From contig NC_049995.1 in NCBI RefSeq assembly GCF_000003815.2, positions 16,134,539 through 16,198,538 of the forward strand: DNA of 64,000 nucleotides, written 5' to 3'. The position numbers and the translations under genes are program-made. This document shows, piece by piece, positions 17,128-63,896 of the stretch (positions are counted from its first letter, which is position 1; each line of letters begins with the position of its first letter). The DNA comes from Branchiostoma floridae. Its lineage: Eukaryota > Chordata > Leptocardii > Amphioxiformes > Branchiostomatidae. The notes under the pieces are model-generated. The model was not told where the DNA came from. It did not search any database and worked only from the letters and a program-made list of their open reading frames with translations.

Positions 17128-17884
17128 CCAGGTGCGAGCTCAGGAATCGGGAGGGGGACAGCTGTGAATTTGCCCAGCTGGGAGCGCACCTGGCTCTGAC
17201 TGGGAGGAACCAGGAAAACCTGCAGGCCACAGCAAAGGCCTGTGTGGAGGCAGGGACTCCGCAAGACAAGGTGTTTGCTTGTTTGTTTACCTGGCATATG
17301 GTAAATCTTGGTTGACTTTTCCCCCCCAAAAAAACATCTCTTTTCTTTTATGATTAGTTTCTCACTATGACTGCAGAAGCCTGAGGGTAAATGAATTTGT
17401 TTTATTCCTGATACTAGTATTCTCAACTACATTCTGCTTCATGTCTTTTTGACAAAGTTATTTGACTTCATATCTCTCCCCCCAGATTGTGTTGGTAACA
17501 GGAGACATCTGTGATGAACAAGTGCAGAAAAACCTGGTGGAGGAAACTGTGCAGAAGTTTGGCAGGATAGATGTTCTGGTAATGGCATTATCATGCTGAA
17601 GTTATGATCAGTTCTTCGTCTTTTAAGTATATATCTAATATGATTCCAAACTTTTCTTCCATATTGTAAAACTAGAAGTATCTCGTCTCCAGAAGTGTGA
17701 CCCTACTTGATAAGGTTTCAGTTCGGAATCCTTTTTTACGATAGGATGCCGATCTGACTCTTTCTCAGAAAGGCAGCAAGCGCGTCTTCAAGCATCGTTT
17801 TCCAGATAATTCAATGTGGGTAGTATGTGAACGGTGAAAGCCCCTGACACATAAACAAAAAACGTGTGGACAATGTATGTGAAT

Positions 17885-39593: not shown

Positions 39594-42500
39594 ATGGCTG
39601 CCAAAGGTAAGCATGTCTGCAATGGTCTACATATCTCATGTATCAGTATGGCTCTGAGTATACGAGTTATTGATTAATTTGCATGTGAGTGTTTTGGACC
39701 GACTGACTGCCACTACGGCTACTAGCTATGGGACTGAATGAGTGAATGTTTACTTATTTCTTCAGTCATATGATATGTCTCACTGCAAGTACCTAGTACC
39801 CGAGGAACGTGCAGTTCACGTAAGGAGCTACACAGATATTGTAAGTAAACATACGGCGGGAGTTCAATAGGCGTTACATACTGACGGTCTAAACGTCGAC
39901 TTCGCCACTTTTACTGTTTTGTTGAGACCCAATTTGTAACTACTGTAGAAGTTTATATATGATATACCCTCTGTATAACTCTATATGCTACTCGAAGCAT
40001 GTATGCTAGTATAGATGCAGTATCTGCCTGGTACTTATAATTAGTGTGGTTTCCAAATGCGAGACCAGATCACACTTACATGACTGTGCTGTTGTAGCCT
40101 CGTAGTAGTATAATTGTCTATATTGGCTAGTGTAGTAGTTGTGAAACAATGCTTCTCTCCCTTTACTGTAGGTAGGGCAGGTTATAGAATCTTCGATGTT
40201 TAAGATCTATTGCATATGTTACAATACAATAGTATGTAAGGCGGAAAAGTATGGTATTATATAAAGTTTGGTACTTGGAAATCATTTATATAGATATTAG
40301 CACCACACTTTGTTTTTAGAATACCATAATGTTTCTGCATCTGCATCAGAAACCATTGTCAATGTGCATGCTTACTGCCTAGCTGAGATATCTGGGACAC
40401 TTTACAATTTAGGTAACGCCTGGCAAGACATCGATGACCCCAGAGAGGCCATAAAGCATCATGAACAGGAACTGCAGGTGAAGCGGAGTATCTATGGGGA
40501 GGACACCGCGCATCCTGACATCGCCACGACACTTGATAACTTGGGTACCACATGGTGGAACATTGGTGACTACGAAAAGGCCCTGAGCTATTATGAACAG
40601 ACACTACAGATGAGACGAATTATCTATGGTGCGGGCTCCGCACATGCTGACATTGCCACATCACTTCACAACCTGGGTACCGCATGGGGGAAAATTGGTG
40701 ACTACAAAAAGGCCATCAGGTACCATGAACAGGCCCTTCAGATAAGGCGGACTATCTATGGTGAAAACACGGCGCATCCTGTCGTCGCTTCGTCGCTTCA
40801 CAACTTGGGTGTCGTATGGACAAATCTTGGTGATTACAAAAAGGCCATCAGGTACCATGAACAGGAACTTAAGATGTGGCGGGTTATCTATGGTGAGGAC
40901 ACGGCGCATCCTGATATCGCCTCATCACTTTACAACCTGGCTGTCGCATGGAGAATTCTTGGTGATTACAGATGGGCCATCAGGTACCATGAACAGGCAC
41001 TTCAGATGAGGCGGACTATCTATGGTGAGAACACGGCGCATCCTGTCGTCGCTTCGTCACTTGCCAGCTTGGGAATGGCCTGGAATGGCCTTGGTGACCA
41101 CAAACAGGCCATCAGCTACCACGAACAGGCACTTCAGATGGGGCGGAGTATCTATGGTCCAACGACAGCACATCCAGTTATCGCCACGTCACTTAACAAC
41201 CTGGGGTTAGCCTGGAGTATCATGGGTAATTACAGACAGGCAATAAGCTACCACGAAGAGGCTCTGCAGATGCTCAGGAGTATCTATGGTCCAACGACAG
41301 CACATCCTGATATTGCTACCTCACTGAACAACCTGGGGTTAGCCTGGAGTAACCTGGGTAATAATAGGCAGGCAATCAGCTACCACGAAGAGGCTCTGCA
41401 GATGCGCAGGAGTATCTATGGTCCGACTACAGCACATCCTGATATTGCTACCTCACTGAACAACCTGGGGTCAGCCTGGAGTAACCTGGGTAATGATAGA
41501 CAGGCAATCAGCTACCACGAGCAGGCACTTCAGATGGGGCGGAGTATCTATGGTCCAACGACAGCACATCCAGTTATCGCCACGTCACTTGACAACCTGG
41601 GTACCGCATGGGGACATATCGGTAATCACAGACAGGCCATCAGCTATCATGAGGAGGCACTTCAGATGAAGCGGACTATCTATGGTGAGACCACGGCGCA
41701 TGCTGATATCGCATCGTCACTTGACAACTTGGGTGCCGCATGGGGAAATCTTAGTGGTTACAAAAGTGCCCTCAGCTATCATGAACAGGCACTTCAGATG
41801 AAGCGGACTCTCTATGGTGAGACCACGGCGCGTCCTGATATGACCTCGTCACTTCACAACTTGGGTGTCGCATGGGGGAATCTTGGTGATCACAGAAAGG
41901 CCCTCAGCTATCATGAACAGGCACTTCGGATGATGCGGATTGTCTATGGTAAGAACACGGCGCATCCTGACATCGCCACGTCACTGGACAACTTGGGTGC
42001 CGCATGGGGGAATCTTGGTGATCACAGAAAGGCCGCCAGCTTCCGTGAAGAAGCCCTGCAGATGCAGAGGATACTTGCTGAAAGTAAGAGAATTTCAAAC
42101 ATCTTGATATTCATTGTTCCATCTGTATGTACCAAATTCGTTTTGAGTAAAACTTTATACAAATGTGTGGCAAAATGATGACATCCCTGTTGCTAAAAGA
42201 GTACCATAATAACGTAATGATAGATACCTGTAAGTAGCATAAAGTAAATCTTGTGCCCCCAGAAATTTCGTCCGATCCAATTGAGCTTATTGGGCAACCT
42301 GAGATGGTGAGGTTGTACGCCGAAGCCTGTCGCCAGGGGTCGCTGTCAGTACACAGCACACGGGTTCCGGTGGTGGGTCAGTTCAGGTCAGGGAAAACCT
42401 GCTTCATCAAGAGGCTGATGGGAGAAACGGTCAAAGAGGAGGAGGTGGAACCCATTACGGATGGAATCAACATCATTTCAGATGTTCAAAGCAAGACGTG

Positions 42501-45500
42501 GAAGAAGTCAAGAGGTTCGATAAGCGGGTCTATAGCATTCTTGAATTTTTCTCCTTTTTGGTCTTTATTGAAAAATGTGTAAGTAATTGAAATACTGATT
42601 TCACAATCCCTACTGTTCTCTGCAGAGAAGATAGATGACTTAGCAGCACAATTGCTTCGGACACAGCAAGAGACCGGCCCCTCAGCAGGTGATGTTTTAA
42701 GTTTGAGTAGTTTAACCAAACTTGATGTTTGTTTTCTTGAATTCTTAGACAGCAGCATAAGATTATGAAAATTTTACTTCTCTTGGCAGAAGACGAATAC
42801 AAGAATGATGACATGACAGAGACCATACAACAAGAGGCAGAGAACATACAACAAGGGACAGAGACCATGCAACAAGAGACAGAAAAGGCGCCAGAACATA
42901 CTGTAGAAGGTGAGATTAATCTACTTTAATAGGTTTCAAAATATTGATACAAAGTTACAAAGATTCATCATCGAATTAATTTCTAAGCAGATAACATGGC
43001 TGTATCTTTGTGATAACATGGCTGTATCATAAGGTGATCGAGGAAATACCCGGCGAAAGTGTGTGCATTTCCCACCGAAGGAAATCCACACACTTCGCCG
43101 GCTAACTCCTCGGCCAGCTTATGATACTATGTTATCCCACAGTAAGATCTGTTTGGAGATTATGCCGATTCAACAAAATAAGTTTATATATGTCGTTCTC
43201 TACATTCTCGCAGTTGCCCCTACAGAGAAACTTCGCCACGGTGCAAACCTTGAGGAAGAGATGCAGGCGGTAAGACCAGAGCGACAGACTGCGGTCGAAG
43301 AGAACCCAGCCGCCAACATTGAGGTCAGAATCTTGAAAGGTGCATCAGAGATCCCCAAACCGTCCATTCCAGACATCGTCATTGAAGCAGCAGAAAAAAT
43401 GAAGACAGCAGGTATCACTGAAGATGAGATTGGAACTGCCGATCATCCGCGCTTGTCCTTCTGGGACTTCGGCGGGCAGGCAACTTACTACGGAACCCAC
43501 CAGTGCTTCATCACCCCCCGGGGTGTCTACATCCTCGTCATGTCTCTGCTGCAGAAACTGTCGGACCCTGTTCCAGATCTGGACTACAAGGCGTCTGTGG
43601 ACAACCTGAGAACGGGAGGAGGTATGCCCTAGATAAGTTTTTGCTTAAAAACGAAACAGGTTCTTAGTTGATTAAGATATTACTGATGCACTTAAGATGA
43701 TATGTTTGATCTGGACATTTTGATGTAATCCTTTCAATAAGTTGATGTAATGAAAGTAGTGTAGTAAAAGCACGTTTATTCATTCATTCATTCATTCATT
43801 CATTCATTTTATTTATTTATTTAGCCAGGTATACACTCTTAGGACAAAAGCCCTGATTTTCAGCAGAACCCGGGTACATCAAACCACACAACCAATTCAA
43901 CCTGACAAACACAAAATAGAACAACAATGATAACATTGATTCTGTAAACGCGTACGAATGTATTCGCTGTTGTGTTTTCTACAGATTATCTGGACCACTG
44001 GCTCAACTCAGTTCACTCTCACACTCAACACAGAGGACGGCCTCCCGTGATCATCGTCCTCACAAACAAGGACAAGTTCTCAAAGGTGCGTTTTGTTAGT
44101 TTGTTTCACAGGAAATACAGTCTCTTTTACATAAGTAGTAATTGCAATAGTGGATGGAGTAATAGAGCTCCAACGACCCATGCAGAGTACTGTACAATTC
44201 TTAACTTTCTTCCAACACAAAAGTATACACCGATCAAATTTTCAACAGCCACTGTCGCTTTCTTCAGAATTCAGTATTGATCCTGAAGAAGGCGAAATTG
44301 GTCGTTGAAAATTTGTTCCGTGTATACCTTTGTGTTGAAAGAACGTTTGGCATTGTAATATGATAACTATACATCGAGGAGCTTCGTGAATGGCAAACTT
44401 TTGTCGGCATTCCACAGGATCCCGACTACATTGAACAGTACAAACAACAGATACGGCGCCATATCGAGGGAAAAGCGGCAGGAATGCTGGTCATGCCAGA
44501 AATATTTGCCGTGGACAACACAACGGAGGACGCAGAAGTTGACAAGATCCGTGACTACATACGGCAGGTGGCGAGAGACCTGCCGCACATGGGCGAGGAA
44601 ATCCCCATCTCGTGGCTGCATCTCAAGTCTAGACTGACCAAAAGACGGGAGGGGGGGTATCGTTTCCTCAAGTTTCAGGAAATAGCTGACCTCGCCCGAG
44701 TTCCTGAGATCAACATCACAGACAAGCACACGCTCGCCATGGTTCTCACCTTCTTCCACGACCGAGGCGACATCATCTTCTTTGACGAGCCCGGTCTCCG
44801 TGATGACGTCACCCTGCAGCCACAGGTGATGATTGACGCTTTTAAGACCATCATCACAGTACCTCAGTACCAGCTGGGCAAACGGACAAATCCAAAGATG
44901 TGGGAAGATCTGGAACAGAAAGGAGTTATCAGCGATAAGTTGCTGACAAGGATCTGGGAAGAGAAGGACCAACAACTGAAGAAACCTTTTCTGGTCCGAC
45001 ACAAGTCCTTCCTGAAGGCGCTCATGGAGAAGTTCTATCTTATCTGTAACGCCACACCCATCAGCGATGTCAGTGACGAGGGTCAGCAGATCTATTTCGT
45101 GCCTGCACTACTCAGCTGCAAGAGGGACAACACTGAGCTGTATCCAATCAACATGTATCCCTGTCCACAGGCGCTCTACTTCGTGTTCAGCGAGAAGTTT
45201 CTACCCAGCGGTATGTTCTGTCGTCTGCAAGCCTTGTGTGTACGCAGGTTCGGACTGGAGGAGTCCCGTGTGTTTGCCGGCTGTGCTCGCTTCCCTACGG
45301 ACGACAAGGAGCAAGCATTTGTCATCACCAAGGTCAACCACTACTTGAAGGTGGAACTTCTGTCGTCCTCTAACATCTTCACTGAAGGTCTGCGTGTCAG
45401 GAAGTTCCTCAGTAGCGCCTTGTTTGAGATCAAAGAGAAGTGGATCCCCTGTATCCAGTACGAATTGTGCTGCTCTACACAAGAGGATGGAGATGAACCT

Positions 45501-48500
45501 GCATTCCGGGCATTGCAAACGGGTGAAGAATCACAGGGACAGCGTTGGGGGTAAGTTTATAATTTGTCATGGGTAATTAGAGCTGAACAAAGATTTATCT
45601 GATGGTCCATCCCTTTCATTCCTGTTTGCTGATTCGTTAACATATTTCACCAAATATTCAATGTCGGCGAAGGATGATTAACAGAAGAAACATATGTACA
45701 GTTTTAAGCTGTTGATTTTTTCTGTTAAGGATATGAAGGATACTCTATTCCATGTTTTCTTACTAGATTTCCACCCCTCTTCCGCGCCGTTTGGATGTCC
45801 GAAGGGCCACAATCCGATCTTACAGGTAATCTTTTTGAGAACATCGTATTGTTATATGCCAATCAATCAATCAATCACCAACAAACTTTCATTCCTAAAG
45901 CAAGAAACTGTAACAAATGAATGTTCTGTAAGCCAGAATGGAGGCTGTATGTTGCGTCTTTGATGGCCTTAATATGTATATCACCAATGAATTGGTATGA
46001 GACGAATTTTTTTCTTCAAAAATGCGCCAATGTTATATTACAGAAAACTCAGGAGGAGATGGTCCGGTGATCCTTCAGCCGAAGGGAGACCCTAACCTCA
46101 TTGTTGGGATGCGAACGATCGGCCCCGTGTTGGACACTATGGAGCAGGGAGGAGGACTTACTCTGGACCAGTGTGACCACGTCAGGAACCAGCTGACACC
46201 TTTTCAACGGGTACGTGCGGTTCTGGAGATGAAGAAGAGAGGGGACGAAGGTCCGTACCTGCTGCAGTTGGGAGCTGCGGTAGCAATGTGCCTTCCAGAG
46301 TTTGAGGATCTCTTCAGGAAAGAAGAGCGAGGTATGTCATGTCTAGTTTCTAGTCTTGGACCATAAAACGTAGGGAAACAATTGATGCTTTCAATTATAG
46401 ATGATTTTAATGTTCTTGCTGTATTTGTCTACATCCTTCACTACAGAGTTTGTTTCTTTTGGAAACAGAAACGTTAAATGCAAAGAAAAAAAAAACTGAT
46501 ATGTATTCTATTTTGCAGGAAAAGAGCTTGTCATCCTCCACACAGATGACTACACTGCAGAGTTCGCCTCGCCTCTCAAGACAGCTATGAGTGAGTCAGG
46601 AGTGCCCTGTCACACGGAGATAATCGCGTCGTCTGACTCCATCACAGAGAAAACAGTGCAGCTCCTGCTCAACACAAACAACAAGATGGTTCTTCCAGTC
46701 ATCAGTCCCCAGACCCTACATCACCAGCACTGGTCAAACCTCGCCTACGAGTTCCCAGTTCGGAACGGAAGGCTGCTGCTGCCCATCCTGCTGTACCCAC
46801 GGGGTTCCAGACACCAGATGATCCGGGTTCTACAGCGGCGGGCGCCTGTCCTGTGCAGCATGGAACGTGAGGAGATAGAGATGAAAGGAGGTCTCGTGTC
46901 AAAGAGGAAGCTGAAGGATATCTTACAAAAGGTGTGTCATATTTGCTGTATCGCCATTTTGTATACATCATCTTACTTTGAAAAGGAAGAGATCATAATC
47001 CCGGTGCGAATGTTTTAACATTTCCTTTTTTTCCTTTTCTTCAGGTCATGATAGACAAGAAAGAGGGTGAGTTATGACGTCTGCGACAATCTAGATAATT
47101 CACTGACTTCACACGTGTGCTTAAATTCTACGGACATTGAAAAGTTTCCTTAAGTAGTCATACTTGATTCTTGACTCGAGGTGATCTTTGGGTTGACCAA
47201 GCTCCAGACAATCGTCATCGGTGAACGCTAATTCGCAATATTCTTGTGAATTCGAAATTATCGGATGGTCTTAAAAGTATTTCTTTACTCCTTCAATTGC
47301 CTGTAGTACATATTACAATCACGGCCGGTAATATACATGAAACCGTTAGACAGTGTACCTCTGTGGGATGCATTTAAACAGTTGATTCCATCTTTGTTTG
47401 ACAGAGGCCATTTTGTACCGGATCAGCAAAGCTGTTGGTGCAGAGTGGACCCGGCTGGGACAGGAACTGGGGCTGGAAAAGTCCGTCTTGGACGAGATCA
47501 AAGGTGACAACGCCACGAAGGCGGCAATGCAGATGCTGAAGGCGTGGCGCATCAAGACCCCCCACGGACCACTGCACTACCTGCCGCAGGTGGAGGATGC
47601 ACTGCAGAACATTGACAGGCCGGACGTGACTGCAGCTTTACAGGAGACATACAAGGTGAGGTGTTGTTCTGCCGTCTTTTCTCTGCTTGCATCCAATATG
47701 TTTTGTGAAACTTTTTGACATATATTGAAATATAAGTTGTTGTTCTTGAAAAAGTTTCTTTATGTACATTTTGTGAAATACATGTGATATGGCCATTTTA
47801 AGGAAACGTTGAACTACATTCTTAGTTATACGAACATAGGCAATCTTCTGCATTGATAGAGCTGGAACCCTACATCTACTTGCTTTGTTAACAGAAGAAG
47901 AGCCAAGTAGAGCGTGCTTTACATATCATTGGTGCACCCGTAATCTTAAGAATCAACTAAATGTCTTTACCATTTTTGTTTTGTCTTCCTACATGAAAAA
48001 GAAGAAGATTAGCACAACAGGAATAACAGCATGTTTTCCCAATCGGGTAAAACATAACGAGTTCTTACTGACGTTGGATATTGGTTCCCAATTATCTGAC
48101 CAATATCGCGTAGAAACTCATTATGTCAATTCAATCCATATCCGTCTAAAAAGGCTCACCAATGTCTTCTTTGTTCACCTCAGGAATACCGAAATGGCGT
48201 GGAGTTGAGAGAACTTAGTCCAGACATGAACGAAGACAAAACCTGGTGAGTTACCACGTTAGCATTTGACATTCAGAAGTATGTTTTCATCTGTATGTGG
48301 TTCATGAATGTGGTAGATTTCAACAGTCATGTACCTAACGAATGCATCTGTATGTAACCGACGACGATAAGTCAAACAATAATAGATGCAGAATATCTTA
48401 ATGCCTAAAATTTTGTTTGGTCGGGCTGTCATCACACGTAATTAGAATGACTTAACGTGTAAGTAATAAATTGTACGACATGTATCCAGGTATATGATAC

Positions 48501-51500
48501 CTGTGTTTATCTCCTCAGGTCCCTCCGCCTGCCAGGTGAAGGGAAGTACCTGTGCAGACGGACCGACCTGGGCGTGGTGACGCCCTACCCGCTGCACGTG
48601 ACCTACAAGAGTGTGAACTGGTCCGACAAGTGGCAAGAGGTCGGCGAATGGATGCCGGTGGGTCCGCTCTTCTCCATCCAGTGTGAGGACGTGGAGGGGC
48701 CGGTGGACATCCTACTGCCACACGTGCTGCATCTGACTGAGAATACAGGTAAGGAGGACACATTTAGTTTATACAGATGTATACCTAAACACTGAATAGG
48801 GATCTATTTGTTTTTCACGCAGAATGTCCAGCGAACAATATTTCAACTCACATGAAAAAGGATTAGTTATTAGATAATCCTTCTTTTAATTAGATGAACT
48901 TTATAAAAAGAGTGATATGTGGTTCGATGATTGATGGTTCTCTTCTGTTTCATTTCCAACATTTCTCAAAGCCATCACTGTTTGTACTTTTTACTTCAGA
49001 GATCACAATTGACGATCTACAAGTCGTGCACGTAGTTGGTGATTCGGTCGAACTGCTGCCGGTTACAGAACTCACCCCCTCCCACGCGGTGACCAGGTTC
49101 AAGAAAGGCAGTCTGTTTGGGTTGGTGGGGAAGACGAAAAAAGTGTTTAGCGTATCTAGAAATTGCCTGCTGATGGCGTTTCGCTTCCTAGATGACTCTG
49201 ATCTTTCCACATTGAAAGTCTACATCGTCTCCAACACTAGGGAGATAACAGAGGTGGGAATGTATGAAATATGCACGTACTCATAGCACAAATTGTAACT
49301 TCATTCAACAATCGAGGACTTTTGTGTCCTTTTAAATAACTTCAAGTCAATTCATTTCGAACGTACAGCTTATATCTAAAACTCAATCTTAGTTATCTAC
49401 TTATTTTACTACCTTAGACCCTTACGGAGGACGAGAAAAGGTGGAACTTTGAGCCATGTGGTCTCAAAACCTGCCATTTGAGCCCTGGTGACTTGTACTC
49501 CCTGGAGGGGAGTGTTACAAACGGAGGGAGTGAGATGGTGTCTATTTCACCACAGGTATGTTGATTAACATAAAATGTAGGGAGAATTGCTGATCAATTG
49601 CTTCATCTATAACAAACTTATCTCAACTGATTGATGCCACTTCCAATGTACCTGCAAATTTTTATCCCCATCAGAAAAATTGCATTTTGATAAACCGAGG
49701 TAATCATGCTTGGGAAAACAAAAGGACAATGCATTAATTTCCTGTATTGCGCCTTTGTTTATCCAGTATTGTGCTTTCAATCTTCAGCATCTTATGTTCG
49801 AAGACACCCTTGACAAAAACAAATTCTACGAACCGTTCGAAGTTGAAGTTACTGCCGACATCTGGATGGACAACACAACACGGCTGCATCTGGAACTGCT
49901 GAAGGAGACCACCGAAGAAGGGAATGGGACTCAGCCACTTTCACAGCTAACACTTGGTAGTCAGTCCCAGACCATTTGATTTCTGTTTTGTCATCCTAAC
50001 TTGGGTTTTAAAAAGATTGACAAGCAGATAACTTTCACAATGAAGAGTATGAACGACGATTATGAGCAACCGTTGATTTTTTTTCAGGGCGTTACAAGCG
50101 AAGTCAACTAGCTGAAGGAGTTGACAGTGGCCATTCAACGCCAACAGAGCTGGAATCTGTGAGGCAGAAACTGGAGTCAGCAAGATTAACAGGTATTCTC
50201 TGAACGTTACTGATGGCATGAGCTCCTGGTTAAACAAAACTGTCATCTTTACCATATAATAACAATTGCAAGTATGTGTATGTGTTACGTTATGTCATGT
50301 GTGTACTTTTGTATATGTCCAGGAAGACTAGCGCTAGCAGTGTACAATATTTAGAATTTTGTATCACAGCTAATGGACAAATAAAGCCTCTCTAAGCCCT
50401 GGAAACCAGACTGTTAGAATCTGCAGAGAATCTGTTCGGCAGCCAAAACTGGTCTTCCCAAGGACCTTAATTAAGCACTCCGGGAAGAAGTCATTCAGGG
50501 AGAGTTTTTGCCGACCTAGCTATATAGTCAAGACTTTTAGTTAGGCCAGTAAACTATCCCAGCATGACACTTGTTCAAAGAGACATCACTACTGTAAAAC
50601 AAATGTTAGAGATATGAAATATCTTTTTCTTTAACTTGCAACTATTTCCAACATCCCCTAAGCTATACACATCACATTGACAGATTTTAAACTTATTCAT
50701 TCACTTTAACTTTCTGCCTGAATGATGATAATGATGATGAACTATCTGCTTGTACAGATGACGACATGGGAGCTTCAGGAACTGCTGGACATCTGCAGAG
50801 GGAGCCTGGCCACCCAGGGGCTGAAACTGAAGGTGACAACTTATCAAACACTCTGACAAACCGCCTTATTAAACAATTCTTACTAATTTGGCATTAATGC
50901 TTAAACCAACTTATCAAATATTCTGTCACAAATTTGAATATATGGTATACCGGTAGATTTAACACTAAACTGACCCCGATTTGTATATTATTGATAACCA
51001 TAGTTTGGTGATTTACCAAATTGCTACTGCACCTTCAAACACAATACCAACCAAATGCAAACATAGCCACTCTCTCATAACCTTGACCAACCTGTCGTGT
51101 GAAGTGCATGCGATCTGCTTTAAAAAGATATGATGATTGATTTCTCAATGTTATTTTCAATAAGCATTGGACATACGTTTTTCGTTTTAATATTTGTAAG
51201 AAAATAATAATGCCAATAATGATAATGATGATGATGATAATACATGTACTCACAACAATAATAATAATAATAATAATAATAGAACGAGTGAAACAGAGCA
51301 AAAACTAGAGAGAAAAACTGTTTTTATCTTTTTTGTTGTGGCATTGAGACATCAAAACCGATCTTCGTAGTTTGTTTTCAACATCCTCTCATTTCAAATG
51401 ATTTAAATGAATAAAAGGCCCAGTCTCAAATTATCTTTCTATGTGTGAATGGTTTTAATTTGGCTAAAACGGAAATTCACCAAAAATATAACCAGTGTGG

Positions 51501-52826
51501 ACCTGTTGGTGATTGTTGAAAGTTACATGCATTTTAAAGTTTACATATATTTATCGGTACAAACTCCACAGAGGAATTTTGTCTCTCTAAATACATTTCA
51601 TACTATCATAATCATTTACACCCGTTTGATGTCAAGTGATTGATCCGTGTTTTTTTCCAGTAGACGTGAAGGAAAGTCATATCGAGACAGTCCTCAAAGA
51701 AGCCAGTGACGATTGGGATGAGCTGGCACTGAAGCTTGGTTTCAGCGATAACGAGATAGGTGTCATCCAAGACATGAAGCCAGACCAGAACCGCAGGTGC
51801 AGGAAAATGCTGACCGAGTGGAGAAACAGGGAGGGAAGTGGCGCTACTCTACATGTTCTGAAGCAGGCACTCAACGACATTGACCGACGTCGTGTAACAG
51901 AGCTCTTAGATCGTAAGTGCACGTCGTTGACGTTGTTGTTGTACCTTTATTTATTTTATTTTATTTTATTCACATACATTTAACGAGCATAGGACAGAAA
52001 GCTCAATAATGAGCTTATAGACGTCTTCTGCTCAAGATATATGAAATGACAGTCAAAATTAACAAAATCAACAGAGTCAAATGAAAATGGTGACAGTTAA
52101 CATAATAGTCAATTTGCAACAAAAATGAACTGGAGCACATACAAGGCTGGCTTACCAATCTAAATTTATCTAATTGAATCTTCCGGTCTTTGAAATAAAA
52201 TTGAAAACAAAGTCTGCAATATTACAGTTTGTCGAGTGTGGGAGGGAAGGGCTGCCCTTAATGAGAAAGGTACATAAGGTATGTATTGTCAGAGGAATTG
52301 AGGGGGTCAGGCGAGAGTAGTTCTTCTAGGTTTAAACGGAATATGGATTGCAGCATATGATTCCTTTCGCTGTTATATAGTTCACGGTGCAACAGGTAAT
52401 GCTCAGTGGTCTCATTTGAATTTCCACATTTACAAGTAGGACTAGTTATACAATAGTGTTTGAATAGATGTGAGTTAAGTGAGTTACCTTTATTTAACCG
52501 ATGTCTGTAAATAGTAAAGTCATTATGGTGATCAATTAACGTTGGCGCCCTCTTTTTCATATTCATTTTCGTGTAAATATTTACGGAATGTTTGAAAATC
52601 AATACAACTCTTAACATCTGCCGTTTGTAATGTAGGTGGTTTGATACTTTCAAAATATATAGATGACACCAATAGTAGGGATTTCGTGTACAAGAGGTAC
52701 ACTATTGACTAACATTAAATGATTTTGACATTGAATCGAATTTTTCGTCAAACAGGATCCCGAGTAGCTGTGGAGCCAAACGGAAACAATACTGATGGTC
52801 CACCTGGGAGGAAGAAGTCAAATTAA
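39594..52826 (+). CDS. TPR-ROCO-CARD-TIR-Death-ZU5/UPA(FIIND)-Death protein, 22 coding exons, about 2,080 aa
   Basis: Coding exons: 39594-39606, 40320-42083, 42263-42514, 42626-42688, 42790-42909, 43214-43621, 43985-44085, 44418-45550, 45767-45825, 46044-46331, 46519-46931, 47045-47066, 47405-47655, 48184-48245, 48519-48748, 49000-49253, 49418-49555, 49788-49956, 50088-50192, 50758-50832, 51661-51912, 52756-52826. Phases join exactly (6,243 bp). Domains (approximate residues): 13 kinesin-light-chain-type TPRs (10-590); Roc with P-loop GQFRSGKT (631-638), DFGGQ (822-826) and TNKD (900-903); COR (907-1284); CARD-like (1304-1400); TIR-like (1401-1538); Death (1546-1629); ZU5 then UPA, resembling the FIIND of NLRP1/PIDD (1630-1913); Death (1974-2057); basic tail. 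It is likely a cytosolic GTP-regulated scaffold or sensor in innate immunity or cell death; ligand and output are unknown. Death, COR and Roc calls are firm; CARD and TIR are by eye. A split into two genes is possible but phases argue against it. Confidence 0.85.
40397..42076 (+). repeat. Thirteen 132-bp (44-codon) TPR repeats in one exon
   Basis: Each unit follows the pattern SL-NLG-AW-LGD-A-YHEQALQM-R-IYG-TAHP-IA. Units 6-9 share longer identical stretches (IYGPTTAHP), consistent with recent unequal exchange. The whole array lies in a single 1,764-bp exon bounded by phase-1 introns. Confidence 0.93.
42995..43140. mobile_element. Foldback element in a TPR-ROCO intron
   Basis: ATACCCGGCGAAAGTGTGTG pairs with CACACACTTCGCCGGCTA, and outer ATGGCTGTATCATAAG pairs with CTTATGATACTATG. 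It lies in the intron before the exon carrying the Roc G3 motif. Confidence 0.75.
43776..43830. repeat. (ATTC)n microsatellite followed by (TTTA)n
   Basis: About seven CATT units run into TTTATTTATTTA in the intron before the exon carrying TNKD. Confidence 0.9.
44195..44345. mobile_element. Foldback element in a TPR-ROCO intron
   Basis: CTTTCTTCCAACACAAAAGTATACACCG-type left arm (kept here to its key part CAACACAAAAGTATACAC) pairs with GTGTATACCTTTGTGTTG. An inner pair (TTTTCAACAGCCA.. / ..TTGGTCGTTGAAAA) and a GAAGAAGGCG/CGCTTTCTTC pair follow. Confidence 0.75.
51186..51290. repeat. Compound (AAT/GAT)n microsatellite
   Basis: Imperfect ATA/ATG/AAT trinucleotides lie in the intron before the second Death exon. 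Confidence 0.9.
52255..52680 (-). mobile_element. LINE fragment (reverse transcriptase ORF C-terminal end), minus strand
   Basis: The 131-codon minus frame contains HRLNKGNSLNSHLF, a CKCGNSNETTEHYLLH segment and YNSERNHMLQSI. This Cys-rich, H-containing end after a reverse-transcriptase domain is typical of several non-LTR retrotransposon families. The polymerase part is missing. It sits in the last intron of the TPR-ROCO gene, opposite to its transcription. Confidence 0.75.
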
Positions 52827-55375: not shown

Positions 55376-58300
55376 ATGGCTGCCCAAGGTAACTATCTCT
55401 TGTACAAAATCAGACAATATCTGTTGTATAAAACGAGCAGGCATGAATCCTATAGGTCATGTACCTGACACTTACTTCATTCCCATTTAAGCTTTTATCA
55501 CCAGTTTGGAGTTACCAGTTGGTTAGAGGGTTCATAATGGACCTTACATAAGATACCATGGGACAATGTTACAGTGTATTAATATCAGTAGCCTTATATA
55601 CATTATTGCTACGGCATATCTATAAGGGATCAGTGTTAATACCAGTAATAACTTTATATGATTAACTTTTTATTTCATGTTCAATTGGATGACTGTGTAA
55701 ATGCTCCCTCTAACATACATGTGACCATGGTCTATTTGAACACAGACAATAACGTACTCTTTGACCCTCATTGAGCGTTTTCGTCAGGCTTATTAGCACC
55801 GATTCACAAAATATACAATTTTGTCACATGCGGTTAATCAAGGGGCTTTTATACAAGCTCCTTGGGTTAATATATAAACATTTATCAACATTGAGAACGC
55901 CAAAGTTAGGGGGCGTGGTCTATTTGTGACCCTGGTCTATTTTAATAGCCCTAATCCCCATGTACCTCATTGAACTTAATATGTAAATATACCACGAGTT
56001 TGAAAAAGAGAGAAGAAAATATTAGAAGTAGCGATTAACGATAGTATTATGATGTGTCCTATGGAGACACATGATATCTTAGATCATTTTCCATTAGTCT
56101 AGCTGAAACTACTGTATTAGCTAACTTGCTTTTATTCCTTTTCACCCATTAGACCACTTGTGGCCAATTGTACATTTAGCCTACGTGCACGAACATGCAA
56201 TAAAGATTATTATTATTATTATCATTATTGAACAATTTCCCTAGGCTCAGTACCAATTGCGAAATATTAGATTTTTAAAGAACATTTATGAGTCACCAAA
56301 GTTATGGGGCGTGGTTTATTTGTGACCTTGGTCTATTTGAACTATGTAAATGCACTTTGACCCTCAGTGTGCTACTTTCTAATGCTCTATGCCCCTTGGA
56401 CATATAGTAACGCTAAATTACCCTTGGATCATATTTCAAAAATGTAAGTCATCGAAGTTAGGGAACAACTGATTTACATTTAGATTATTACGTCATTTAC
56501 TTCTAGGGTAGTTAGTCTTTCTAGTAGAAATGTTTGGTGGTGAGATTTATTAATGCTTGTTTCAGTTGACGTAAAGAACTATTTCAAAATAGTCATCAAA
56601 GGAGCCAGTAACAAGTGGGAGGAGCTTGCGGATGAGCTGGGGTTCGACGATAACGAGATAGGTGTCATCCGAGACTTGAAGCGAGACGATGACCGCAGGT
56701 GCAAGGAAATGCTGACCAGGTGGAGAAACAGGAAGGGACGTGACGCTACTCTACAGGTTCTGAAGAAGGCACTCATCGACATTGACCAAGCGATGGTAGC
56801 ACAGAGCTTAAATGGTACGTGCACGTCGTTGCTGTTCTGCATTTATTCAACTTAAAACGATATAGAATATCGAACAAAGAAACATCGAAATGTTTCGAGC
56901 TTAGAAGGTAAACACTGTGGACGGAACGACAGAGGGGTGTGGCGACTCTCCAACAGGGTCAAGATTAGCTTGGATGCCAACCTTCTTCAGTTCCCTCTTT
57001 TTTATCACTTCCCGTTGGGTAACCTAAAGCTGATAAGACTGTAATCTATAGCTAGCTATTAGCTACATTAATATTAGTGAGCAGCTGGCATGAGAAAGAA
57101 AAACAAATGTAACAATACTCATCTGAGGTTCACGTTATATGTCGGGATGTATTTACCTCCTTTGGGCCAGGTATGCAATAACATGATAACGCGAGAGGTA
57201 AACTTGCACTTTGACATTTGATTCTTGCGTTGCAGGTGAAAGCGGCATTCCTGTTCCACCGGAAAGCGGCACTGCTGTTCCACCGGGAAGCGGCGCTGAT
57301 GTTCCATCCAGCAGCGGCGCTGGTGTTCTACTAGGAAGCGGCGCCGATGTTCCCCTTGGAAGCGGCGCTGGTAAGCACACATGGATGCATGACAAGTGCT
57401 ATATCCAAAGCTTCATATGAACAGTTATATGAGTAAACATCTCTAACACTCAAGCATAAGCTTGCCACATTAGAGACCACTGTAAGAGTAAGCTACTTTA
57501 CGGGGAATACTCACTATACTCATAAGTGTGAAAACCAGCAAAACTATTTTTATCTTAGTAGTCCGGGGGCAGTTAATAAAATAATTTTATTGTATTATCC
57601 TTTGATTAATCATGACATTGCTTCCTACAGGTCCAAAACGAACCATCTTGTTGGTCAACGACGAGTATGGCACCTCCAAGGGGGGAGTTTCTACCATCAA
57701 CTACCAGGCGGGCCAAATGCTGAGCGCCGCAAACGCAACCGTGTACGCCACAGCCCTGTGGGTGCCGAAACGAGACCAGGAGGCAGCAGACAGGGACGGC
57801 GTGATGCTGATAGGCCCAGATCTGCTAGGTAAGAAGGACGAGCCAACTTTAGACTGGCTGACCTACTACCACGGAGTCCACTACCCAAACCTCCCAAAGC
57901 ACGTCGACTGCATCATCGGTCATGCTCCCATAACAAATACGGCGGCACGAAACATCTGGGAACAGCGCTACCCACTGGCAGACCTCATGTCGTTCAACCA
58001 CGTCCTACCCGAGGATACAGAGTACTACAAGGGAGGTCGGAAGCCCATGGAAGCATGGAAGAAAGAGGAGGATATCCTTGATAAAGTCAATAACGCACTG
58101 GCAGCTTTCTCGGTGGGCAAACGGATCTATGACCACTTCGACACCATGTACAAGGCAGACAAGAAACCGCGGAGTCACTACATCTTTCTCCCGAAGCCAT
58201 CCGAGATATTTATGGACACCAATGTGAGTCCTGGAGGAGAGCAAAAAGTCGTCTTGTGTATCGGCAGGGTGAGGAAGGTGGAGAAGCTGAAAGGTCATGA

Positions 58301-58850
58301 CCTCGCAGCAGAGTCCATGGGACAGGCGGTGAAGGAGGTCAAGAACGCCAGGTTACGCGTGCGCGGCATCAACGAGGATGATTGGGAGGCGAGCAAGAAG
58401 ATCCTGGAGAAAAACCTGAACAGCCCCGATTTGAACCCCACCCTCCTGCCGTACGGAACACAAGAGGACATCAGGAAGGACATGATGACAGCCCACCTGG
58501 TCCTGATGCCGTCCCGCTCCGAGCCGTTCGGACTGGTCGGCCTGGAGGCCATCGCGGCGGGCATTCCCGTCCTCATCTCAAACCAGACCGGCCTGGCAGA
58601 GATGATCATGGACCTGATCAAACAGAAGAAAATCAACGACGAGCACAGGCACGTCATCGTGGCGACCAGCGTGAACGACTCTGACCGAGCCGGCGATGTG
58701 AAGAGGTGGGCTGAAAGAATCGTGGACATCCTCAAGTACAGCGACTCGGCGTTCAAGAAAGCTGCCAGGTTCAAGCGGGAGCTGGTGGAGTCAAGGTACT
58801 GGGAGGAATCCCACCGCACCTTCCTGCAGGCCTGCGGCATCTCAACTTGA
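55376..58850 (+). CDS. Death domain-GT4-type glycosyltransferase fusion, four coding exons, 538 aa
   Basis: Coding exons: 55376-55388, 56566-56814, 57236-57370, 57631-58850. All introns are phase 1 and sum to 1,617 bp. Residues 5-87 are a Death domain (WEELADELGF, EMLTRWRNR, LKKALIDID) clearly paralogous to the second Death domain of the upstream gene (exon 51661-51912). Residues 88-132 are a linker of about eight-residue SG/VPP repeats. Residues 133-538 are a full GT-B fold of the retaining GT4 type: glycine loop KGGVS near 149-153, the GR...KGHDL phosphate-binding segment, and an EX7E motif at E430-E438 (EPFGLVGLE). It should transfer sugar from a nucleotide-sugar donor; acceptor unknown. 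No signal peptide or membrane segment is seen, so a cytosolic enzyme recruited through Death-domain contacts is inferred. The GT domain is one intronless exon. Its start exon (MAAQ) mirrors MAAK of the TPR-ROCO gene. Confidence 0.88.
55720..56350. repeat. Repeated GTGACC-TGGTCTATTT blocks in Death-GT intron 1
   Basis: GTCTATTTGTGACCCTGGTCTATTTT-type blocks occur at about 55722, 55918 and 56311 with shared flanks (AAAGTTAGGGGGCGTGG / AAAGTTATGGGGCGTGG; TTTGACCCTCA). Local duplication; function unknown. Confidence 0.6.
56100..56230 (+). mobile_element. LINE 3' end (CR1/L2-like tail)
   Basis: GCAATAAAGATTATTATTATT at about 56198 is a polyadenylation-signal-like sequence running into an (ATT)n tail, as at the 3' end of CR1/L2-type elements. 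The body upstream is not recognisable. Confidence 0.5.
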
Positions 58851-60289: not shown

Positions 60290-60952
60290 ATATGGTATGA
60301 CTTCCAATGTCCACAACTGGAAATAGTTGCCCTAACAACAGCGATGAATCCTACATATGTCTGATAACCATGATATAAGTCTAAAGCATCAAATGCCAAA
60401 AACAACGTAACTATTACAAGGCATTTATTGCGTGGTTTCGCTTTTCATGCAGTGTAATTTATTGTGGACACATGGCATACCTTCCTCTGTCCACATCTGG
60501 AAATAGTTGCCCAAACAATAGCGATGAATCCTACATAAGTCTGATAGTCATTATATAAGTTTAAAGTATCAAATGCACAAAGCAACGATTACCAGGCATT
60601 TATTGCTATTGGTATATTTCACTTTTTGTGCTGTGTAATTTATCGTGGGCATGCCTTCCACCATCTACATCTAGAAATAGTTGCCCTAACAATAGCGATG
60701 AAGCCTTCATAAGTCTGATAATCCTTGTCTCAAGCATCAAATGCCAAAAGCAACCACTGCCAGGCATTTATTCCTATAGGTATGTTTTGCTTTTTGGGCT
60801 GTGTAATTTATCGTCGACATCTGGAATTGGTTGCCCTAGGCCTAACAATAGCAATGAATCCTACATAAGTCTGATCAACGCTGTATCAAGTATCAAATGC
60901 CAAAAATCATCTATTGTGTGGTATGCTTTGCTTTTTAAGCTGAGTAGTTTAA
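60290..60952 (-). repeat. Tandem repeat made of the SDR4 3' end (about four units)
   Basis: Units of roughly 160-185 bp share TGTAATTTATCGT / GGACACATGGC, GGAAATAGTTGCCC, GCGATGAATCCTACATA and CAAATGCCAAAA. On the minus strand the unit near 60648 reads GATGGTGGAAGGCATGCCC and then ACGATAAATTACAC, matching the last codons, stop and 3' flank of SDR4 exon 9. The true gene end forms the last unit. Confidence 0.8.
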
Positions 60953-63896
60953 CGCGGACACATGGCGTGCCTGCCACCATCTATGGGGATCTGAGCCCCA
61001 GTAATGAAGGATGCATCCGAAGAGGCCAGGAAGGCGATGGTCTTCGCTACTTCTGAAACTTCCCCGACCCTACCCAGGGCGTGGGTCGACTTGGAATGTT
61101 CCAGAAACTAATGAGGAAAAAAGAGAGACAGATGAACAACGGTTAGATGGCACAAATTTAATTTATTGTTTCTCGGATTCTAAAATAATTACTGCATGAG
61201 GATCACTTTTATGCCCTGGAGCACATTATTTTAATGAGAAATTCAGTCTAACCTCTAGCTCTACATTTGTGATGGCCGCATTCTATATTTACACCTTAAA
61301 TTGTCTGAGAACTAAGAAAATAAATGGTGTGGCCTTAAATGCTTTTGCCAGATATAATTGCAGCGGTTATCATGCAACATCATATTACAAAGTCATCTTC
61401 AAAAGATAGAAGGAACAGAATAAAAGGAGCATATTTCTAATACTTAATGACTGGATATTTGAGGCGAGTAACTTTGTAACAGAGATTTATCTCCAAGCAG
61501 ATATTTGGGGCAAAATTATAAGGATTTCTGCTTGGATAATCATAAGATATAGTAAAGCTCTCCTACCTTGGCATATGTTTCGTCATCCAAACCTGCACTT
61601 TTGTGAACATTAGTTATAATCACTCCGGGGCTGTGAGGGAATACCAATCATAGAGACAAAATCAGACAGAACATTATGAAAATCATGAGGGTTTCGATAA
61701 TTTTCAAAATGTTTTGAAACCAAAACCAGCATATTAAATTATCTGTGATCTGAAAGAATTTGTAGCTGGGCAATTTGAAACTTACTTGACAGAGTTGACT
61801 CTGATTTGCTTGGAAGCCAGTTCTGAAAGATCAAAAGTGAATCTGTGTTAGTGTACAGTGTATGATTATAAATTTTTTATAGATTTTTTATAGATTTTTA
61901 ATTTTCTGATTCTGAGGCTTCAAAAAGTGTGTCTCAGTCTTCATACATGGGACTTCTGAAGCTAGTTACTCATCTACACCTGACTGAAGTGAGGAAATCG
62001 GTGTCATTGCCTTAATGAATCCTAAGGGCACAACATCAGAGCATGTCAGGTGTCTCAAACACAGGACCTCCTAGCTTTGAGCCAAACACCCTACTGCTAT
62101 GCTACACTATGCCTAATTATCACTAACCAAGAGCCACACATCTTGTGAACTGGTCCACAGCTGACTTGCTCATACAGTAGGCCAGAAGCCCGGCAAACTG
62201 CGAAGGAATCATAACAAATTCATGAGTATCAACATAAAAACGTACTATCATATCTTGCAAAGTACAAAGAACTGACTCCAGGTAACATGGATTTTTCTTT
62301 AAAAAAGCTCTTGCTTGCAAAAGAAGTATACAAAGTGCAGTCATTTCAACATTTATCTGGTTTTAAACTTCCTAATTGACAGTTTGTTATCTATATCCTC
62401 AAAGTGAAACATCTAAGAAGGAAACAATTGGCCTACCGCTCGCATCCCGTTGACACTGGACACATTCACAATGGCACCTTGGAGAGACACAAGAAAGAAC
62501 ATTACATCAGACTCCTGCACAAGTTGTCTTTCATCAAGATGTTTTAATGGGCAATTATTTGAAATATAAATAAACATGTCAATTGAAATTGACAGGAAAT
62601 ATAATAAAACATGATATTGTGTTAATTCTTTAAGGTAGTAACATTGAAGACTGGACCAGTAACTTTAGCCCTATTTTGATTGTGATTGACAGAGCACACA
62701 TGCATGCGCACACACTCTCTCTTTCACACACACACACACACACAGTCCACAAACATACACACACACGTTCTTTTACACACAGACACAGACACACACACAC
62801 ATAATCCACACACACTCTCTTTCTCTCTTGCACACAAACACACACACATAGTCTACACACACACAGAAATGCACACACACACACACACACAAACAAACAA
62901 ACATATATCATAACACTAAGTGAAACATATACCTTTTGTTACTGTGAGATGTGGTACACACAGCTGAGTCAGGGCCACAATACTGCGTACATTCACGTTC
63001 ATGAGTTTGTCGTATTCTGCCATATCTGTTGTCTCTATGGTTGCCAGGTGGGCAGTACCAGCATTGTTTACCTGTAGGGATGTTTCAAATAATCTGATCT
63101 ATTGTAGCATACCCTTAGAGCATACAAAATTACCTGAAATAAAGTATGCAATCAAGAAAATACGGTACATTTTTATTTATCTAATTTCAAGAATAGTATG
63201 TATTTGCTTGATTACTTTGAATCTTTGTTTATTCATGATAATCTCCAAAATTAACTGGCCTGGAAAATAATTTTACCCCATCCATCCCAAAAAAGACATG
63301 AAACTGTTGAAAATATACTTTCATAAGCTTAAACTGATAGGCAGGAAAATCAACAACATGGGCTTCAAAACAATGAGAGGAATGGAAAAAAGTTCAAGCT
63401 GGAGACAACCCTCAGGTACTGTTATTGTCATTGTTTAACATAAAGATATTACCATACCAGGACATCTATCCTGCCAAACTTCTGCACAGTTTGTTCCACC
63501 AGGTTTTTCTGCACTTGTTCATCACAGATGTCTCCTGTCACAAGCAGAATCTGGGGGGAGAGACTTGGATAAATTTTCTCCTGAATACATGCCAAATTAA
63601 GGACAGAAAAGAGTGAAGCAGAATGTACTTTATCGGGAAGAAAACAGAGAAATTCATTAACCTTCTACAGTGACAAAGTGAGAATCTTATAAAATTGCAA
63701 TAAACAGCTGGAGCCAAACCTCTGGTTAACAGATAAACAAACAAACAAACAAGCACCTTGTCTTGTGGAGTCCCTGCCTCCACACAGGCCTTTGCTGTGG
63801 CCTGCAGGTTTTCCTGGTTCCTCCCAGTCAGAGCCAGGTGCGCTCCCAGCTGGGCAAATTCCACAGCTGTCCCCCTCCCGATCCCGGAGCTCGCAC
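60949..63896 (-). CDS. SDR4: FabG-like SDR, exons 2-9 (exon 1 off the right edge)
   Basis: Exons on the minus strand, in transcript order: 63757-63896, 63458-63550, 62933-63071, 62437-62477, 62128-62197, 61786-61822, 61567-61630 and 60949-61107. Sizes and phases equal exons 2-9 of SDR1-3. The frame is open, so only the 37-bp first exon (12 codons plus one base) is missing from view. Motifs present: GASSGIG, LTGR, VNNAG, the MNVN catalytic Asn, NVSS, YCMSK, NPG and GAQIP(I)DGG. It is a likely active soluble NADP(H)-dependent oxidoreductase, substrate unknown. Exon 2 is almost identical to those of SDR2 and SDR3, showing recent duplication or gene conversion. It is transcribed toward the Death-GT gene, opposite to SDR1-3. 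Introns are short and lack the satellites of SDR3. Confidence 0.93.
62695..62902. repeat. (CA)n-rich microsatellite
   Basis: Long imperfect CA/CACT/CAAA repeats fill part of SDR4 intron 4. Frames through it are low-complexity artefacts. Confidence 0.97.

What the first reader, a model, noticed from the sequence alone, without database searches (positions are those of the whole stretch)
39594..52826. One reading frame joins TPR, ROCO GTPase, CARD, TIR-like, two Death domains and a FIIND-type ZU5/UPA module
Seen: 22 exons with matching phases give about 2,080 aa with 13 TPRs, Roc (GQFRSGKT, DFGGQ, TNKD), COR, a CARD-like helix bundle, a TIR-like segment, Death, a ZU5/UPA pair and a second Death domain. 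Known: in vertebrates FIIND/ZU5-UPA occurs in NLRP1, CARD8 and PIDD1; ROCO, TIR and Death normally sit in different proteins. Inference: a GTP-switched immune or cell-death sensor that combines several signalling outputs in one chain. I know of no described protein with this full order.
Basis: partly seen in the sequence, partly recalled or inferred. Interest (0 to 1): 0.9.

Follow-up and report, generated by a model that had tools for sequence, protein, structure and literature searches.

The report
Amphioxus ROCO–TIR–FIIND–glycosyltransferase immune sensor gene
This stretch of what is probably a lancelet genome encodes one giant protein that joins a GTP-driven switch, several cell-death signalling domains, an inflammasome-type FIIND module and, most likely, a sugar-transferring enzyme known from microbial warfare, and it belongs to a large family of mix-and-match relatives.

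Summary
The 22-exon model (39594-52826, 2,080 aa) reproduces, with GT-AG introns and matching phases. Pfam finds 13 TPRs, Roc 1.3e-12, COR-A 1.4e-12, Death 2.7e-11, FIIND 2.4e-33, UPA-FIIND 7.4e-9 and Death 3.4e-16. CARD and TIR are only weakly supported. Two paralogous loci keep Roc-COR-CARD-TIR-Death-FIIND-UPA in order, under purifying selection (dN/dS 0.32 and 0.26). A 22-base microexon joining TIR to Death is kept in four loci.

A third Death exon and a GT4-conflict glycosyltransferase exon (1.9e-71) follow in phase, giving about 2,591 aa to 58850. GT4 is the nearest downstream same-strand neighbour of 22 of 29 FIIND pieces tested; the opposite strand never was.

Best reading: one member of a combinatorial ROCO family, probably immune sensors, with swappable N-terminal sensors and C-terminal Death/GT4 outputs. 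The FIIND keeps the catalytic Ser and His but has Gly for Phe at the cleavage site, so self-cleavage is uncertain. No transcript evidence was available. New variant of known kinds (ROCO, FIIND, AP-GTPase-effector conflict proteins).

The parts
39594..39606 (+). proposed exon 1 (MAAK), weakly supported
   Evidence: phase fits; strict pattern search found no copy in paralog A
40320..42083 (+). exon 2: 13 tetratricopeptide repeats
   Evidence: TPR_10 4.3e-114, 13 stretches; 57-60% identity in paralog A; no match in the stretches read upstream of paralog B
42263..44085 (+). exons 3-7: Roc GTPase (GQFRSGKT, DFGGQ, TNKD) with a low-complexity insert
   Evidence: Roc 1.3e-12; dN/dS 0.25-0.49 in the three exons compared; exons 4 and 5 not found in A or B
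44418..45550 (+). exon 8: COR domain
   Evidence: COR-A 1.4e-12; dN/dS 0.23 and 0.19
45767..45825 (+). exon 9, short linker exon needed for phase
   Evidence: 79% identity over 19 aa in paralog A
46044..46331 (+). exon 10: divergent CARD-like domain
   Evidence: CARD 0.043, below cut-off; Apaf-1 CARD best on the 9-member profile, 0.055
46519..46931 (+). exon 11: divergent TIR-like domain
   Evidence: 15-member profile: AbTIR 0.0014; TIR_2 in 2 of 10 members, best 9.1e-4
47045..47066 (+). exon 12: 22-base microexon joining TIR to Death
   Evidence: same length, frame and splice dinucleotides in the window and three paralogs
47405..47655 (+). exon 13: first Death domain
   Evidence: Death 2.7e-11; 30 genomic matches
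48184..49253 (+). exons 14-16: FIIND (ZU5-like) domain with LPH, VVH and KGS at the cleavage-machinery positions
   Evidence: FIIND 2.4e-33; CARD8 7jkq 2.1e-7; KGS at 16 of 16 distinct places covering the site
49418..49956 (+). exons 17-18: UPA domain (begins at the end of exon 16)
   Evidence: UPA-FIIND 7.4e-9
50088..50192 (+). exon 19: conserved linker (AEGVDSGHSTPTELESV)
   Evidence: 82% identity in A; phase-1 donor in the window, A, C3 and C4 copies
50758..50832 (+). exon 20: optional linker, unsupported elsewhere
   Evidence: phase fits; skipping it also stays in frame
51661..51912 (+). exon 21: second Death domain (phase 1-1 exon)
   Evidence: Death 3.4e-16; a relative (41%) follows UPA and exon 19 at C4:27.947 Mb
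   Evidence: no support found; repeat search not answered
56566..56814 (+). third Death domain exon, tandem copy of exon 21 (phase 1-1)
   Evidence: Death 2.6e-15; 77% DNA identity with exon 21 over 341 columns
57236..57370 (+). Pro/Ser/Gly-rich linker exon (phase 1-1)
57631..58850 (+). GT4-conflict glycosyltransferase exon with stop codon
   Evidence: GT4-conflict PF20706 1.9e-71; phase-1 acceptor

Best explanation
One gene, 39594 (or nearby) to 58850, encodes a cytosolic immune sensor of about 2,590 aa: TPR - Roc - COR - CARD - TIR - Death - FIIND - UPA - Death - Death - GT4. SHOWN by sequence: the domains (CARD and TIR weakly), the order, the conserved splice phases, purifying selection between paralogs, and co-linearity with GT4. 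INFERRED: that it is one transcript; the TPR solenoid reads a danger or microbial signal; Roc-COR acts as the GTP-controlled dimer switch; opening it lets CARD, TIR and Death domains seed oligomers and recruit caspases or kinases; FIIND-UPA holds the C-terminal Death-Death-GT4 part in check. The protein may cleave itself at the KG|S site and stay associated until activated. GT4 then glycosylates an invader or host target. The family diversifies by swapping phase-1 exon modules at both ends.
For: Domains. Order kept in two paralogous loci. Microexon between TIR and Death kept in four loci. dN/dS 0.315 and 0.259. Nearest GT4 within 15 kb is downstream on the same strand for 22 of 29 FIIND, 23 of 30 Death1 and 8 of 17 TIR pieces; opposite strand 0 in each of the six sets. 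Of 23 GT4 5' ends, 18 have a pyrimidine-rich phase-1 acceptor (3 and 0 of 23 for the other two phases) and 14 have no Met in the open run. At C3:32.23 Mb exon 19 is open, has a phase-1 donor, and ends about 370 bases before the GT4 match. All joins in the window are in frame. GT4 is 43% identical to A's (389 codons) and 72% to B's (58 codons), while most other A exons are 72-89% identical, as expected from C-terminal swapping.
Against: No transcript or protein data. The GT4 exon in the window has an in-frame ATG (57612) upstream of its acceptor, so a separate intronless gene is possible here; 9 of 23 GT4 exons have such a Met. Two FIIND pieces have their nearest GT4 upstream and five have none within 15 kb; 28 of 55 Roc and 9 of 17 TIR pieces have none. 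Paralogs A and B show no Death2 (A reads through to GT4; B has a 2.2-kb N run there). Exon 1 is unconfirmed. CARD and TIR are below Pfam cut-offs. A conserved two-gene cassette could also give same-strand co-linearity, and tandem duplication makes the counts non-independent.
Confidence: 0.62

Rival explanations
1. The gene ends at or near 52826 (Death2) or just after UPA, and Death3-GT4 is an independent neighbouring gene that travels with it as a cassette.
For: An in-frame ATG lies just upstream of the GT4 acceptor in the window; 7 of 29 FIIND pieces lack a downstream GT4 within 15 kb; some loci carry DeathB instead of GT4.
Against: 14 of 23 GT4 exons have no Met in their open run and must be spliced to something upstream; UPA match to GT4 match is only 529-789 bases at six loci; phase-1 chain in the window and at C3; 0 opposite-strand cases.
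Confidence: 0.2
2. The FIIND is a non-cleaving ZU5-UPA-Death supramodule that works only as an autoinhibitory clamp, as described for UNC5B (recalled).
For: The P1 Phe, described as a structural anchor for cleavage in CARD8 (PMC3210808, abstract and passages), is Gly at 16 of 16 distinct places covering the site. The position of CARD8 Glu-279, which modulates cleavage there, is Leu in the printed alignment.
Against: The Ser nucleophile and the VVH/IVH histidine are kept at 16 of 16 places, and LPH is kept in the window; Gly-Ser is the scissile pair in self-cleaving SEA domains (recalled).
Confidence: 0.5
3. Two fused models: a TPR-ROCO-CARD-TIR gene followed by a Death-FIIND-UPA-Death gene.
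For: Both halves occur separately in the genome: COR-CARD-TIR without FIIND, and Roc-COR-Death-FIIND without TIR.
Against: The 22-base microexon and its flanking phases are conserved at the TIR-Death junction in four loci. I did not search systematically for a separate first exon of the second half.
Confidence: 0.05
4. Pseudogene or assembly artefact.
For: Tandem families assemble poorly; N runs occur in the window and in paralogs.
Against: No internal stop in 2,591 codons; dN/dS 0.26-0.32.
Confidence: 0.04

Closest known systems
Bacterial AP-GTPase (Roc)-COR conflict proteins with GT4 or TIR effectors (Kaur et al. 2021, PMC8195603; section 15 read, other passages seen)
   Same: Roc-COR switch fused to a repeat sensor and C-terminal conflict effectors including GT4 and TIR; several paralogs per genome
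   Different: Here the animal protein adds CARD-like, Death and FIIND-UPA modules and carries several outputs in one chain
NLRP1, CARD8 and PIDD1 (FIIND / ZU5-UPA proteins)
   Same: FIIND-UPA followed by a death-fold domain; CARD8 is the best solved match; Ser and His of the cleavage machinery kept
   Different: ROCO switch, with no NACHT hit; Gly for the P1 Phe; C-terminal GT4
Human ROCO proteins LRRK1/2, DAPK1, MASL1 (architectures recalled; names in search listing PMC3995007)
   Same: Roc-COR tandem with repeat domain; DAPK1 also ends in Death
   Different: No kinase hit; CARD, TIR, FIIND and GT4 present
Animal GT4 proteins (coral expansion of over 500; GT4-TRADD-N-LRR in cephalochordates, hemichordates, cnidarians; PMC8195603)
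   Same: GT4-conflict domain in multi-domain immune-type proteins
   Different: No TRADD-N among the Pfam hits of the segments scanned; fused to ROCO and FIIND
TPR-ROCO-TIR of the red alga Chondrus and exon-shuffled LRR-ROCO of brown algae (PMC11378527, passages)
   Same: ROCO with TPR and TIR; exon shuffling as a diversifying mechanism
   Different: Shuffled units here are whole phase-1 domain exons; death-fold and FIIND modules are not in the architectures quoted in the passages

Membership tests
ROCO | Roc GTPase immediately followed by COR | tested here: met
   Roc 1.3e-12, COR-A 1.4e-12, both over cut-off
ROCO | intact P-loop, G3 and G4 motifs | tested here: met
   GQFRSGKT, DFGGQ, TNKD in the translation; motif meaning recalled
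ROCO | GTP-dependent dimer cycle | not testable with these tools
   needs protein
FIIND | Pfam FIIND and UPA-FIIND over cut-off | tested here: met
   115 and 36.6 bits against 25.8 and 27
FIIND | Ser nucleophile and the two histidines equivalent to CARD8 His-252 and His-270 | tested here: met
   alignment to 7jkq (numbering matched by me from the spacing); KGS and VVH/IVH at 16 of 16 distinct places; residues from PMC3210808 passages
FIIND | Phe at P1 (SF/S or HF/S) | tested here: not met
   Gly at 16 of 16 distinct places covering the site, window included
FIIND | autoproteolysis | not testable with these tools
   needs protein
TIR | significant similarity to TIR domains | tested here: inconclusive
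   no Pfam hit in the window exon; AbTIR 0.0014 and 0.0021 best of 5 PDB matches with a 15-member profile, then two histamine methyltransferase chains at 0.21 and 0.43; TIR_2 in 2 of 15 members, TIR in 1
TIR | catalytic Glu of NADase TIRs | tested here: inconclusive
   the invariant Glu of WSxLxYEF lies two residues from the AbTIR Glu in the printed alignments; catalytic position recalled
CARD | significant similarity to CARD | tested here: inconclusive
   0.043 and 0.027; 3 of 9 members match CARD weakly; Apaf-1 0.055; a TAL-effector chain ranked first with 5 members
Death domain | Pfam Death over cut-off | tested here: met
   2.7e-11, 3.4e-16, 2.6e-15
GT4-conflict glycosyltransferase | Pfam GT4-conflict over cut-off | tested here: met
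   1.9e-71, 241.6 bits against 26
GT4-conflict glycosyltransferase | E-x7-E catalytic motif | tested here: met
   EPFGLVGLE, identical in paralog A; motif rule recalled
NLR | NACHT domain | tested here: not met
   no NACHT among the Pfam hits shown for the segments scanned
DAPK | protein kinase domain | tested here: not met
   no kinase among the Pfam hits shown for the segments scanned

The most novel reading that the evidence does not exclude
A chordate 'ROCO inflammasome': a repeat-fused Roc-COR GTPase whose FIIND cleaves itself at a non-canonical KG|S site, so that activation or degradation of the N-terminal half frees a UPA-Death-Death-GT4 fragment. That would deliver a bacterial-type conflict glycosyltransferase as the effector, with sensors and outputs exchanged by phase-1 exon shuffling across dozens of paralogs.
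Probability: 0.25. Interest if true: 0.92.

Novelty: new variant of a known kind. Interest (0 to 1): 0.72.

Why it matters
FIIND-driven release of a death-fold fragment is known from vertebrate NLRP1 and CARD8 (recalled), and GT4 and Roc-COR conflict proteins from bacteria. A family that physically joins them in an invertebrate chordate would show that FIIND control also lies outside NLRs. It would also give an animal immune output that is an enzyme rather than only a recruiter, and make the function of animal GT4-conflict domains directly testable with one gene.

Tried and rejected
Structure prediction for the TIR exon was not possible (switched off), so profiles against PDB sequences were used. 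A scan of prokaryote contigs with a two-sequence GT4 alignment found no relative; patterns from two close sequences are a poor probe, so this says nothing about bacterial GT4. A 2008 amphioxus domain paper gave no match for ROCO, ZU5, TPR or glycosyl. Two-gene and pseudogene readings were set low on the microexon and dN/dS evidence. Death2 was at first suspected to belong to a neighbour because A and B lack it; a copy after UPA and exon 19 at C4:27.947 Mb argues for membership. An apparent frameshift in exon 19 of the C3:32.23 Mb copy was my own error: the join repeated one base.
Full report
Setting. The window is C17:16134539-16198538 of an unnamed 513-Mb, 431-contig genome. The size agrees with the Florida amphioxus assembly as I recall it; no tool named the organism. 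No eukaryotic transcript or proteome collection was available, so the argument rests on DNA, profiles and paralogs.

Observation. Pfam gives TPR_10 with 13 stretches, Roc 1.3e-12, COR-A 1.4e-12, Death 2.7e-11, FIIND 2.4e-33, UPA-FIIND 7.4e-9 and Death 3.4e-16. The 'ZU5/UPA' pair is therefore FIIND-type; its best solved relative is CARD8 (7jkq, 2.1e-7). The CARD exon scores 0.043, below cut-off, and the TIR exon nothing. With more relatives, the best PDB matches of the TIR profile are two chains of the bacterial NADase AbTIR (0.0014 and 0.0021, 15-member alignment), followed by histamine methyltransferase at 0.21 and a TIR-STING fusion at 1.2; with 10 members AbTIR chains were the only two matches, at 0.029 and 0.049. 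Pfam TIR_2 matches 2 of 15 members (best 9.1e-4) and TIR 1 of 15; unrelated families match 1 or 2 members each at 0.02 or worse. The best CARD profile matches are Apaf-1 CARDs (0.055, 9 members), and CARD is the only Pfam family listed (3 of 9 members, best 0.016). With 5 members a TAL-effector repeat chain ranked above Apaf-1 at 0.0011; it was absent with 9 members. I call these two segments divergent CARD and TIR, not proven.

One gene. Paralog A (C17:3.10 Mb, minus strand) carries exons 2, 3, 6-11 and 13-19 (TPR, Roc, COR, exon 9, CARD, TIR, Death, FIIND, UPA, linker) in the same order. Paralog B (C5:23.96 Mb) carries exons 3, 6-8, 10, 11, 13 and 15-18; exons 14 and 19 are weak there and exon 9 has only a marginal match inside the COR frame. 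Exons 4, 5, 20 and 21 had no convincing match in either. B has no TPR in the upstream stretches read, but an N-terminal CARD (3.3e-18) and, by eye, ankyrin-like frames further up. Nei-Gojobori dN/dS is 0.315 (A, 1,197 codons) and 0.259 (B, 1,149 codons). Per exon it ranges from 0.16 to 0.49, except exon 19 in A (1.02, 34 codons) and exon 9 in A (no synonymous change, 19 codons); TPR was left out, and exons 9 and 19 gave no hit in B. The junction that decides one gene or two, TIR to Death, contains a 22-base microexon in the window, A, B and C4:27.94 Mb, with the same length and frame and with AG and GT at both sides.

The 3' end. All joins are phase 1, so exons 1-21 plus these three read as 2,591 aa without an internal stop.

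Is GT4 part of the gene? I took 80 of the 106 GT4 pieces and, for each feature set, asked for the nearest GT4 within 15 kb (order: downstream same strand, upstream same strand, opposite strand, none). FIIND (the best 29 of the 48 pieces): 22, 2, 0, 5. Death1 (30 of 30): 23, 2, 0, 5. Roc (55 of 147, picked by hand): 23, 4, 0, 28. COR (58 of 84): 25, 3, 0, 30. TIR (17 of 20): 8, 0, 0, 9. CARD (17 of 22): 8, 0, 0, 9. Tandem duplication makes these counts non-independent, but they come from several chromosomes. Of 23 GT4 5' ends read (window, A, B and 20 more), all 23 have an AG at the phase-1 position within 40 bases, which alone is not rare; for 18 it is pyrimidine-rich, against 3 and 0 of 23 for the other two phases in the same output. 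Fourteen of 23 have no Met in the open run, so they cannot start a protein themselves; nine do, including the window (ATG at 57612). At C3:32.23 Mb exon 19 is open, ends in a phase-1 donor at 32231023, and the GT4 match begins at 32231391 (one search had shown a frameshift there that came from a one-base error in my join). UPA match to GT4 match is 529-789 bases at six loci and 1.6-1.7 kb at two of the eight computed. Phase-1 donors at exon 19 are also seen in A and C4. At C14 an LRR-Roc-COR frame has two phase-1 and one phase-0 donor candidates near its end, the last (phase 1) about 1.5 kb before GT4. I judge fusion about 80% likely.

A combinatorial family. Merging hand-typed subsets of the hit tables by strand and distance (GT4 49 of 106, chosen near other features; DeathB 39 of 150; UPA 15 of 29; Roc 45 of 147; the merge rules are crude) gives: 3 loci with COR-CARD-TIR-Death-FIIND-UPA-(Death)-GT4 (window, A, B); 16 with Roc-COR-Death-FIIND with or without UPA and then GT4; 4 COR-CARD-TIR-GT4 and 1 CARD-TIR-GT4; 6 COR-CARD-TIR-DeathB; 8 Roc-GT4 or Roc-COR-GT4; the remaining strings are partial or singletons, among them loci with no GT4. 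The window protein thus unites modules that elsewhere occur in subsets. A's GT4 is only 43% identical to the window's (389 codons) while most other A exons are 72-89% identical (one Roc exon 58%); B's is 72% over 58 codons. The C-terminus seems to be swapped independently of the core.

Mechanism. Roc-COR switching and repeat sensing follow from the ROCO family (established knowledge). CARD, TIR and Death are recruiters or, for TIR, possibly an enzyme; the invariant Glu of WSxLxYEF sits two residues from the AbTIR Glu in the printed alignments. For FIIND, D'Osualdo et al. (PMC3210808, abstract and passages) report that CARD8 needs Ser-297, that His-252 and His-270 are crucial, that Phe-296 is a structural anchor, and that Glu-279 modulates cleavage. 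The window has the Ser and both His; the Glu-279 position is Leu in the printed alignment. In one search (20 tblastn rows = 16 distinct places covering the site, three duplicate rows and one row too short) all 16 read KGS and keep the VVH or IVH histidine. Phe is absent in all 16. Self-cleavage is about even odds. The GT4 keeps E-x7-E (rule recalled), so an active glycosyltransferase is expected; Kaur et al. (PMC8195603, section 15 read in full, other passages) propose that such GT4 domains modify invader or host molecules.

Novelty. Kaur et al. describe bacterial AP-GTPase-COR proteins with GT4 and TIR effectors, large animal GT4 expansions, and TRADD-N fusions to FIIND. A 2024 paper mentions TPR-ROCO-TIR in a red alga (PMC11378527, passages). 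Of the other papers, PMC11508797 and PMC7159879 were seen as passages and the rest as listings. Searches (open-access full text only) listed no paper that I could see to describe ROCO with FIIND or this order; the source data of Kaur et al. could not be read and might list such proteins. I therefore file it as a new variant of known kinds.

Noticed in passing
window 56566-58850: Third Death exon and GT4-conflict exon downstream of the finding; treated as its probable 3' end.
   Followed up: yes
L046:2967-3551 and L049 (C5:23.95-23.96 Mb): Paralog B has an N-terminal CARD (3.3e-18), and ankyrin-like frames (by eye) further up, in place of the TPR array: swapped sensor end.
   Followed up: partly
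L076:330-4250 (C14:1.94 Mb): LRR-Roc-COR in one 1,306-aa frame followed by GT4: a simpler relative of the same kind.
   Followed up: partly
L053:1284-3132 (C6:436-439 kb): Pairs of Death exons 60-74% identical to exon 21, about 1.5 kb apart and repeated at four places on C6; possible source of the shuffled Death exons.
   Followed up: partly
window 8345-8884, about 17100-17300, 60949-61107, 62916-63664: Pieces of short-chain dehydrogenase genes on both sides of the ROCO gene (adh_short or adh_short_C2 hits for four frames; the 17 kb copy was seen by eye only).
   Followed up: partly
   Followed up: partly
L052, about C17:3097325-3098122, minus strand: Reverse-transcriptase-like open frame (by eye) downstream of paralog A's GT4.
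   Followed up: no
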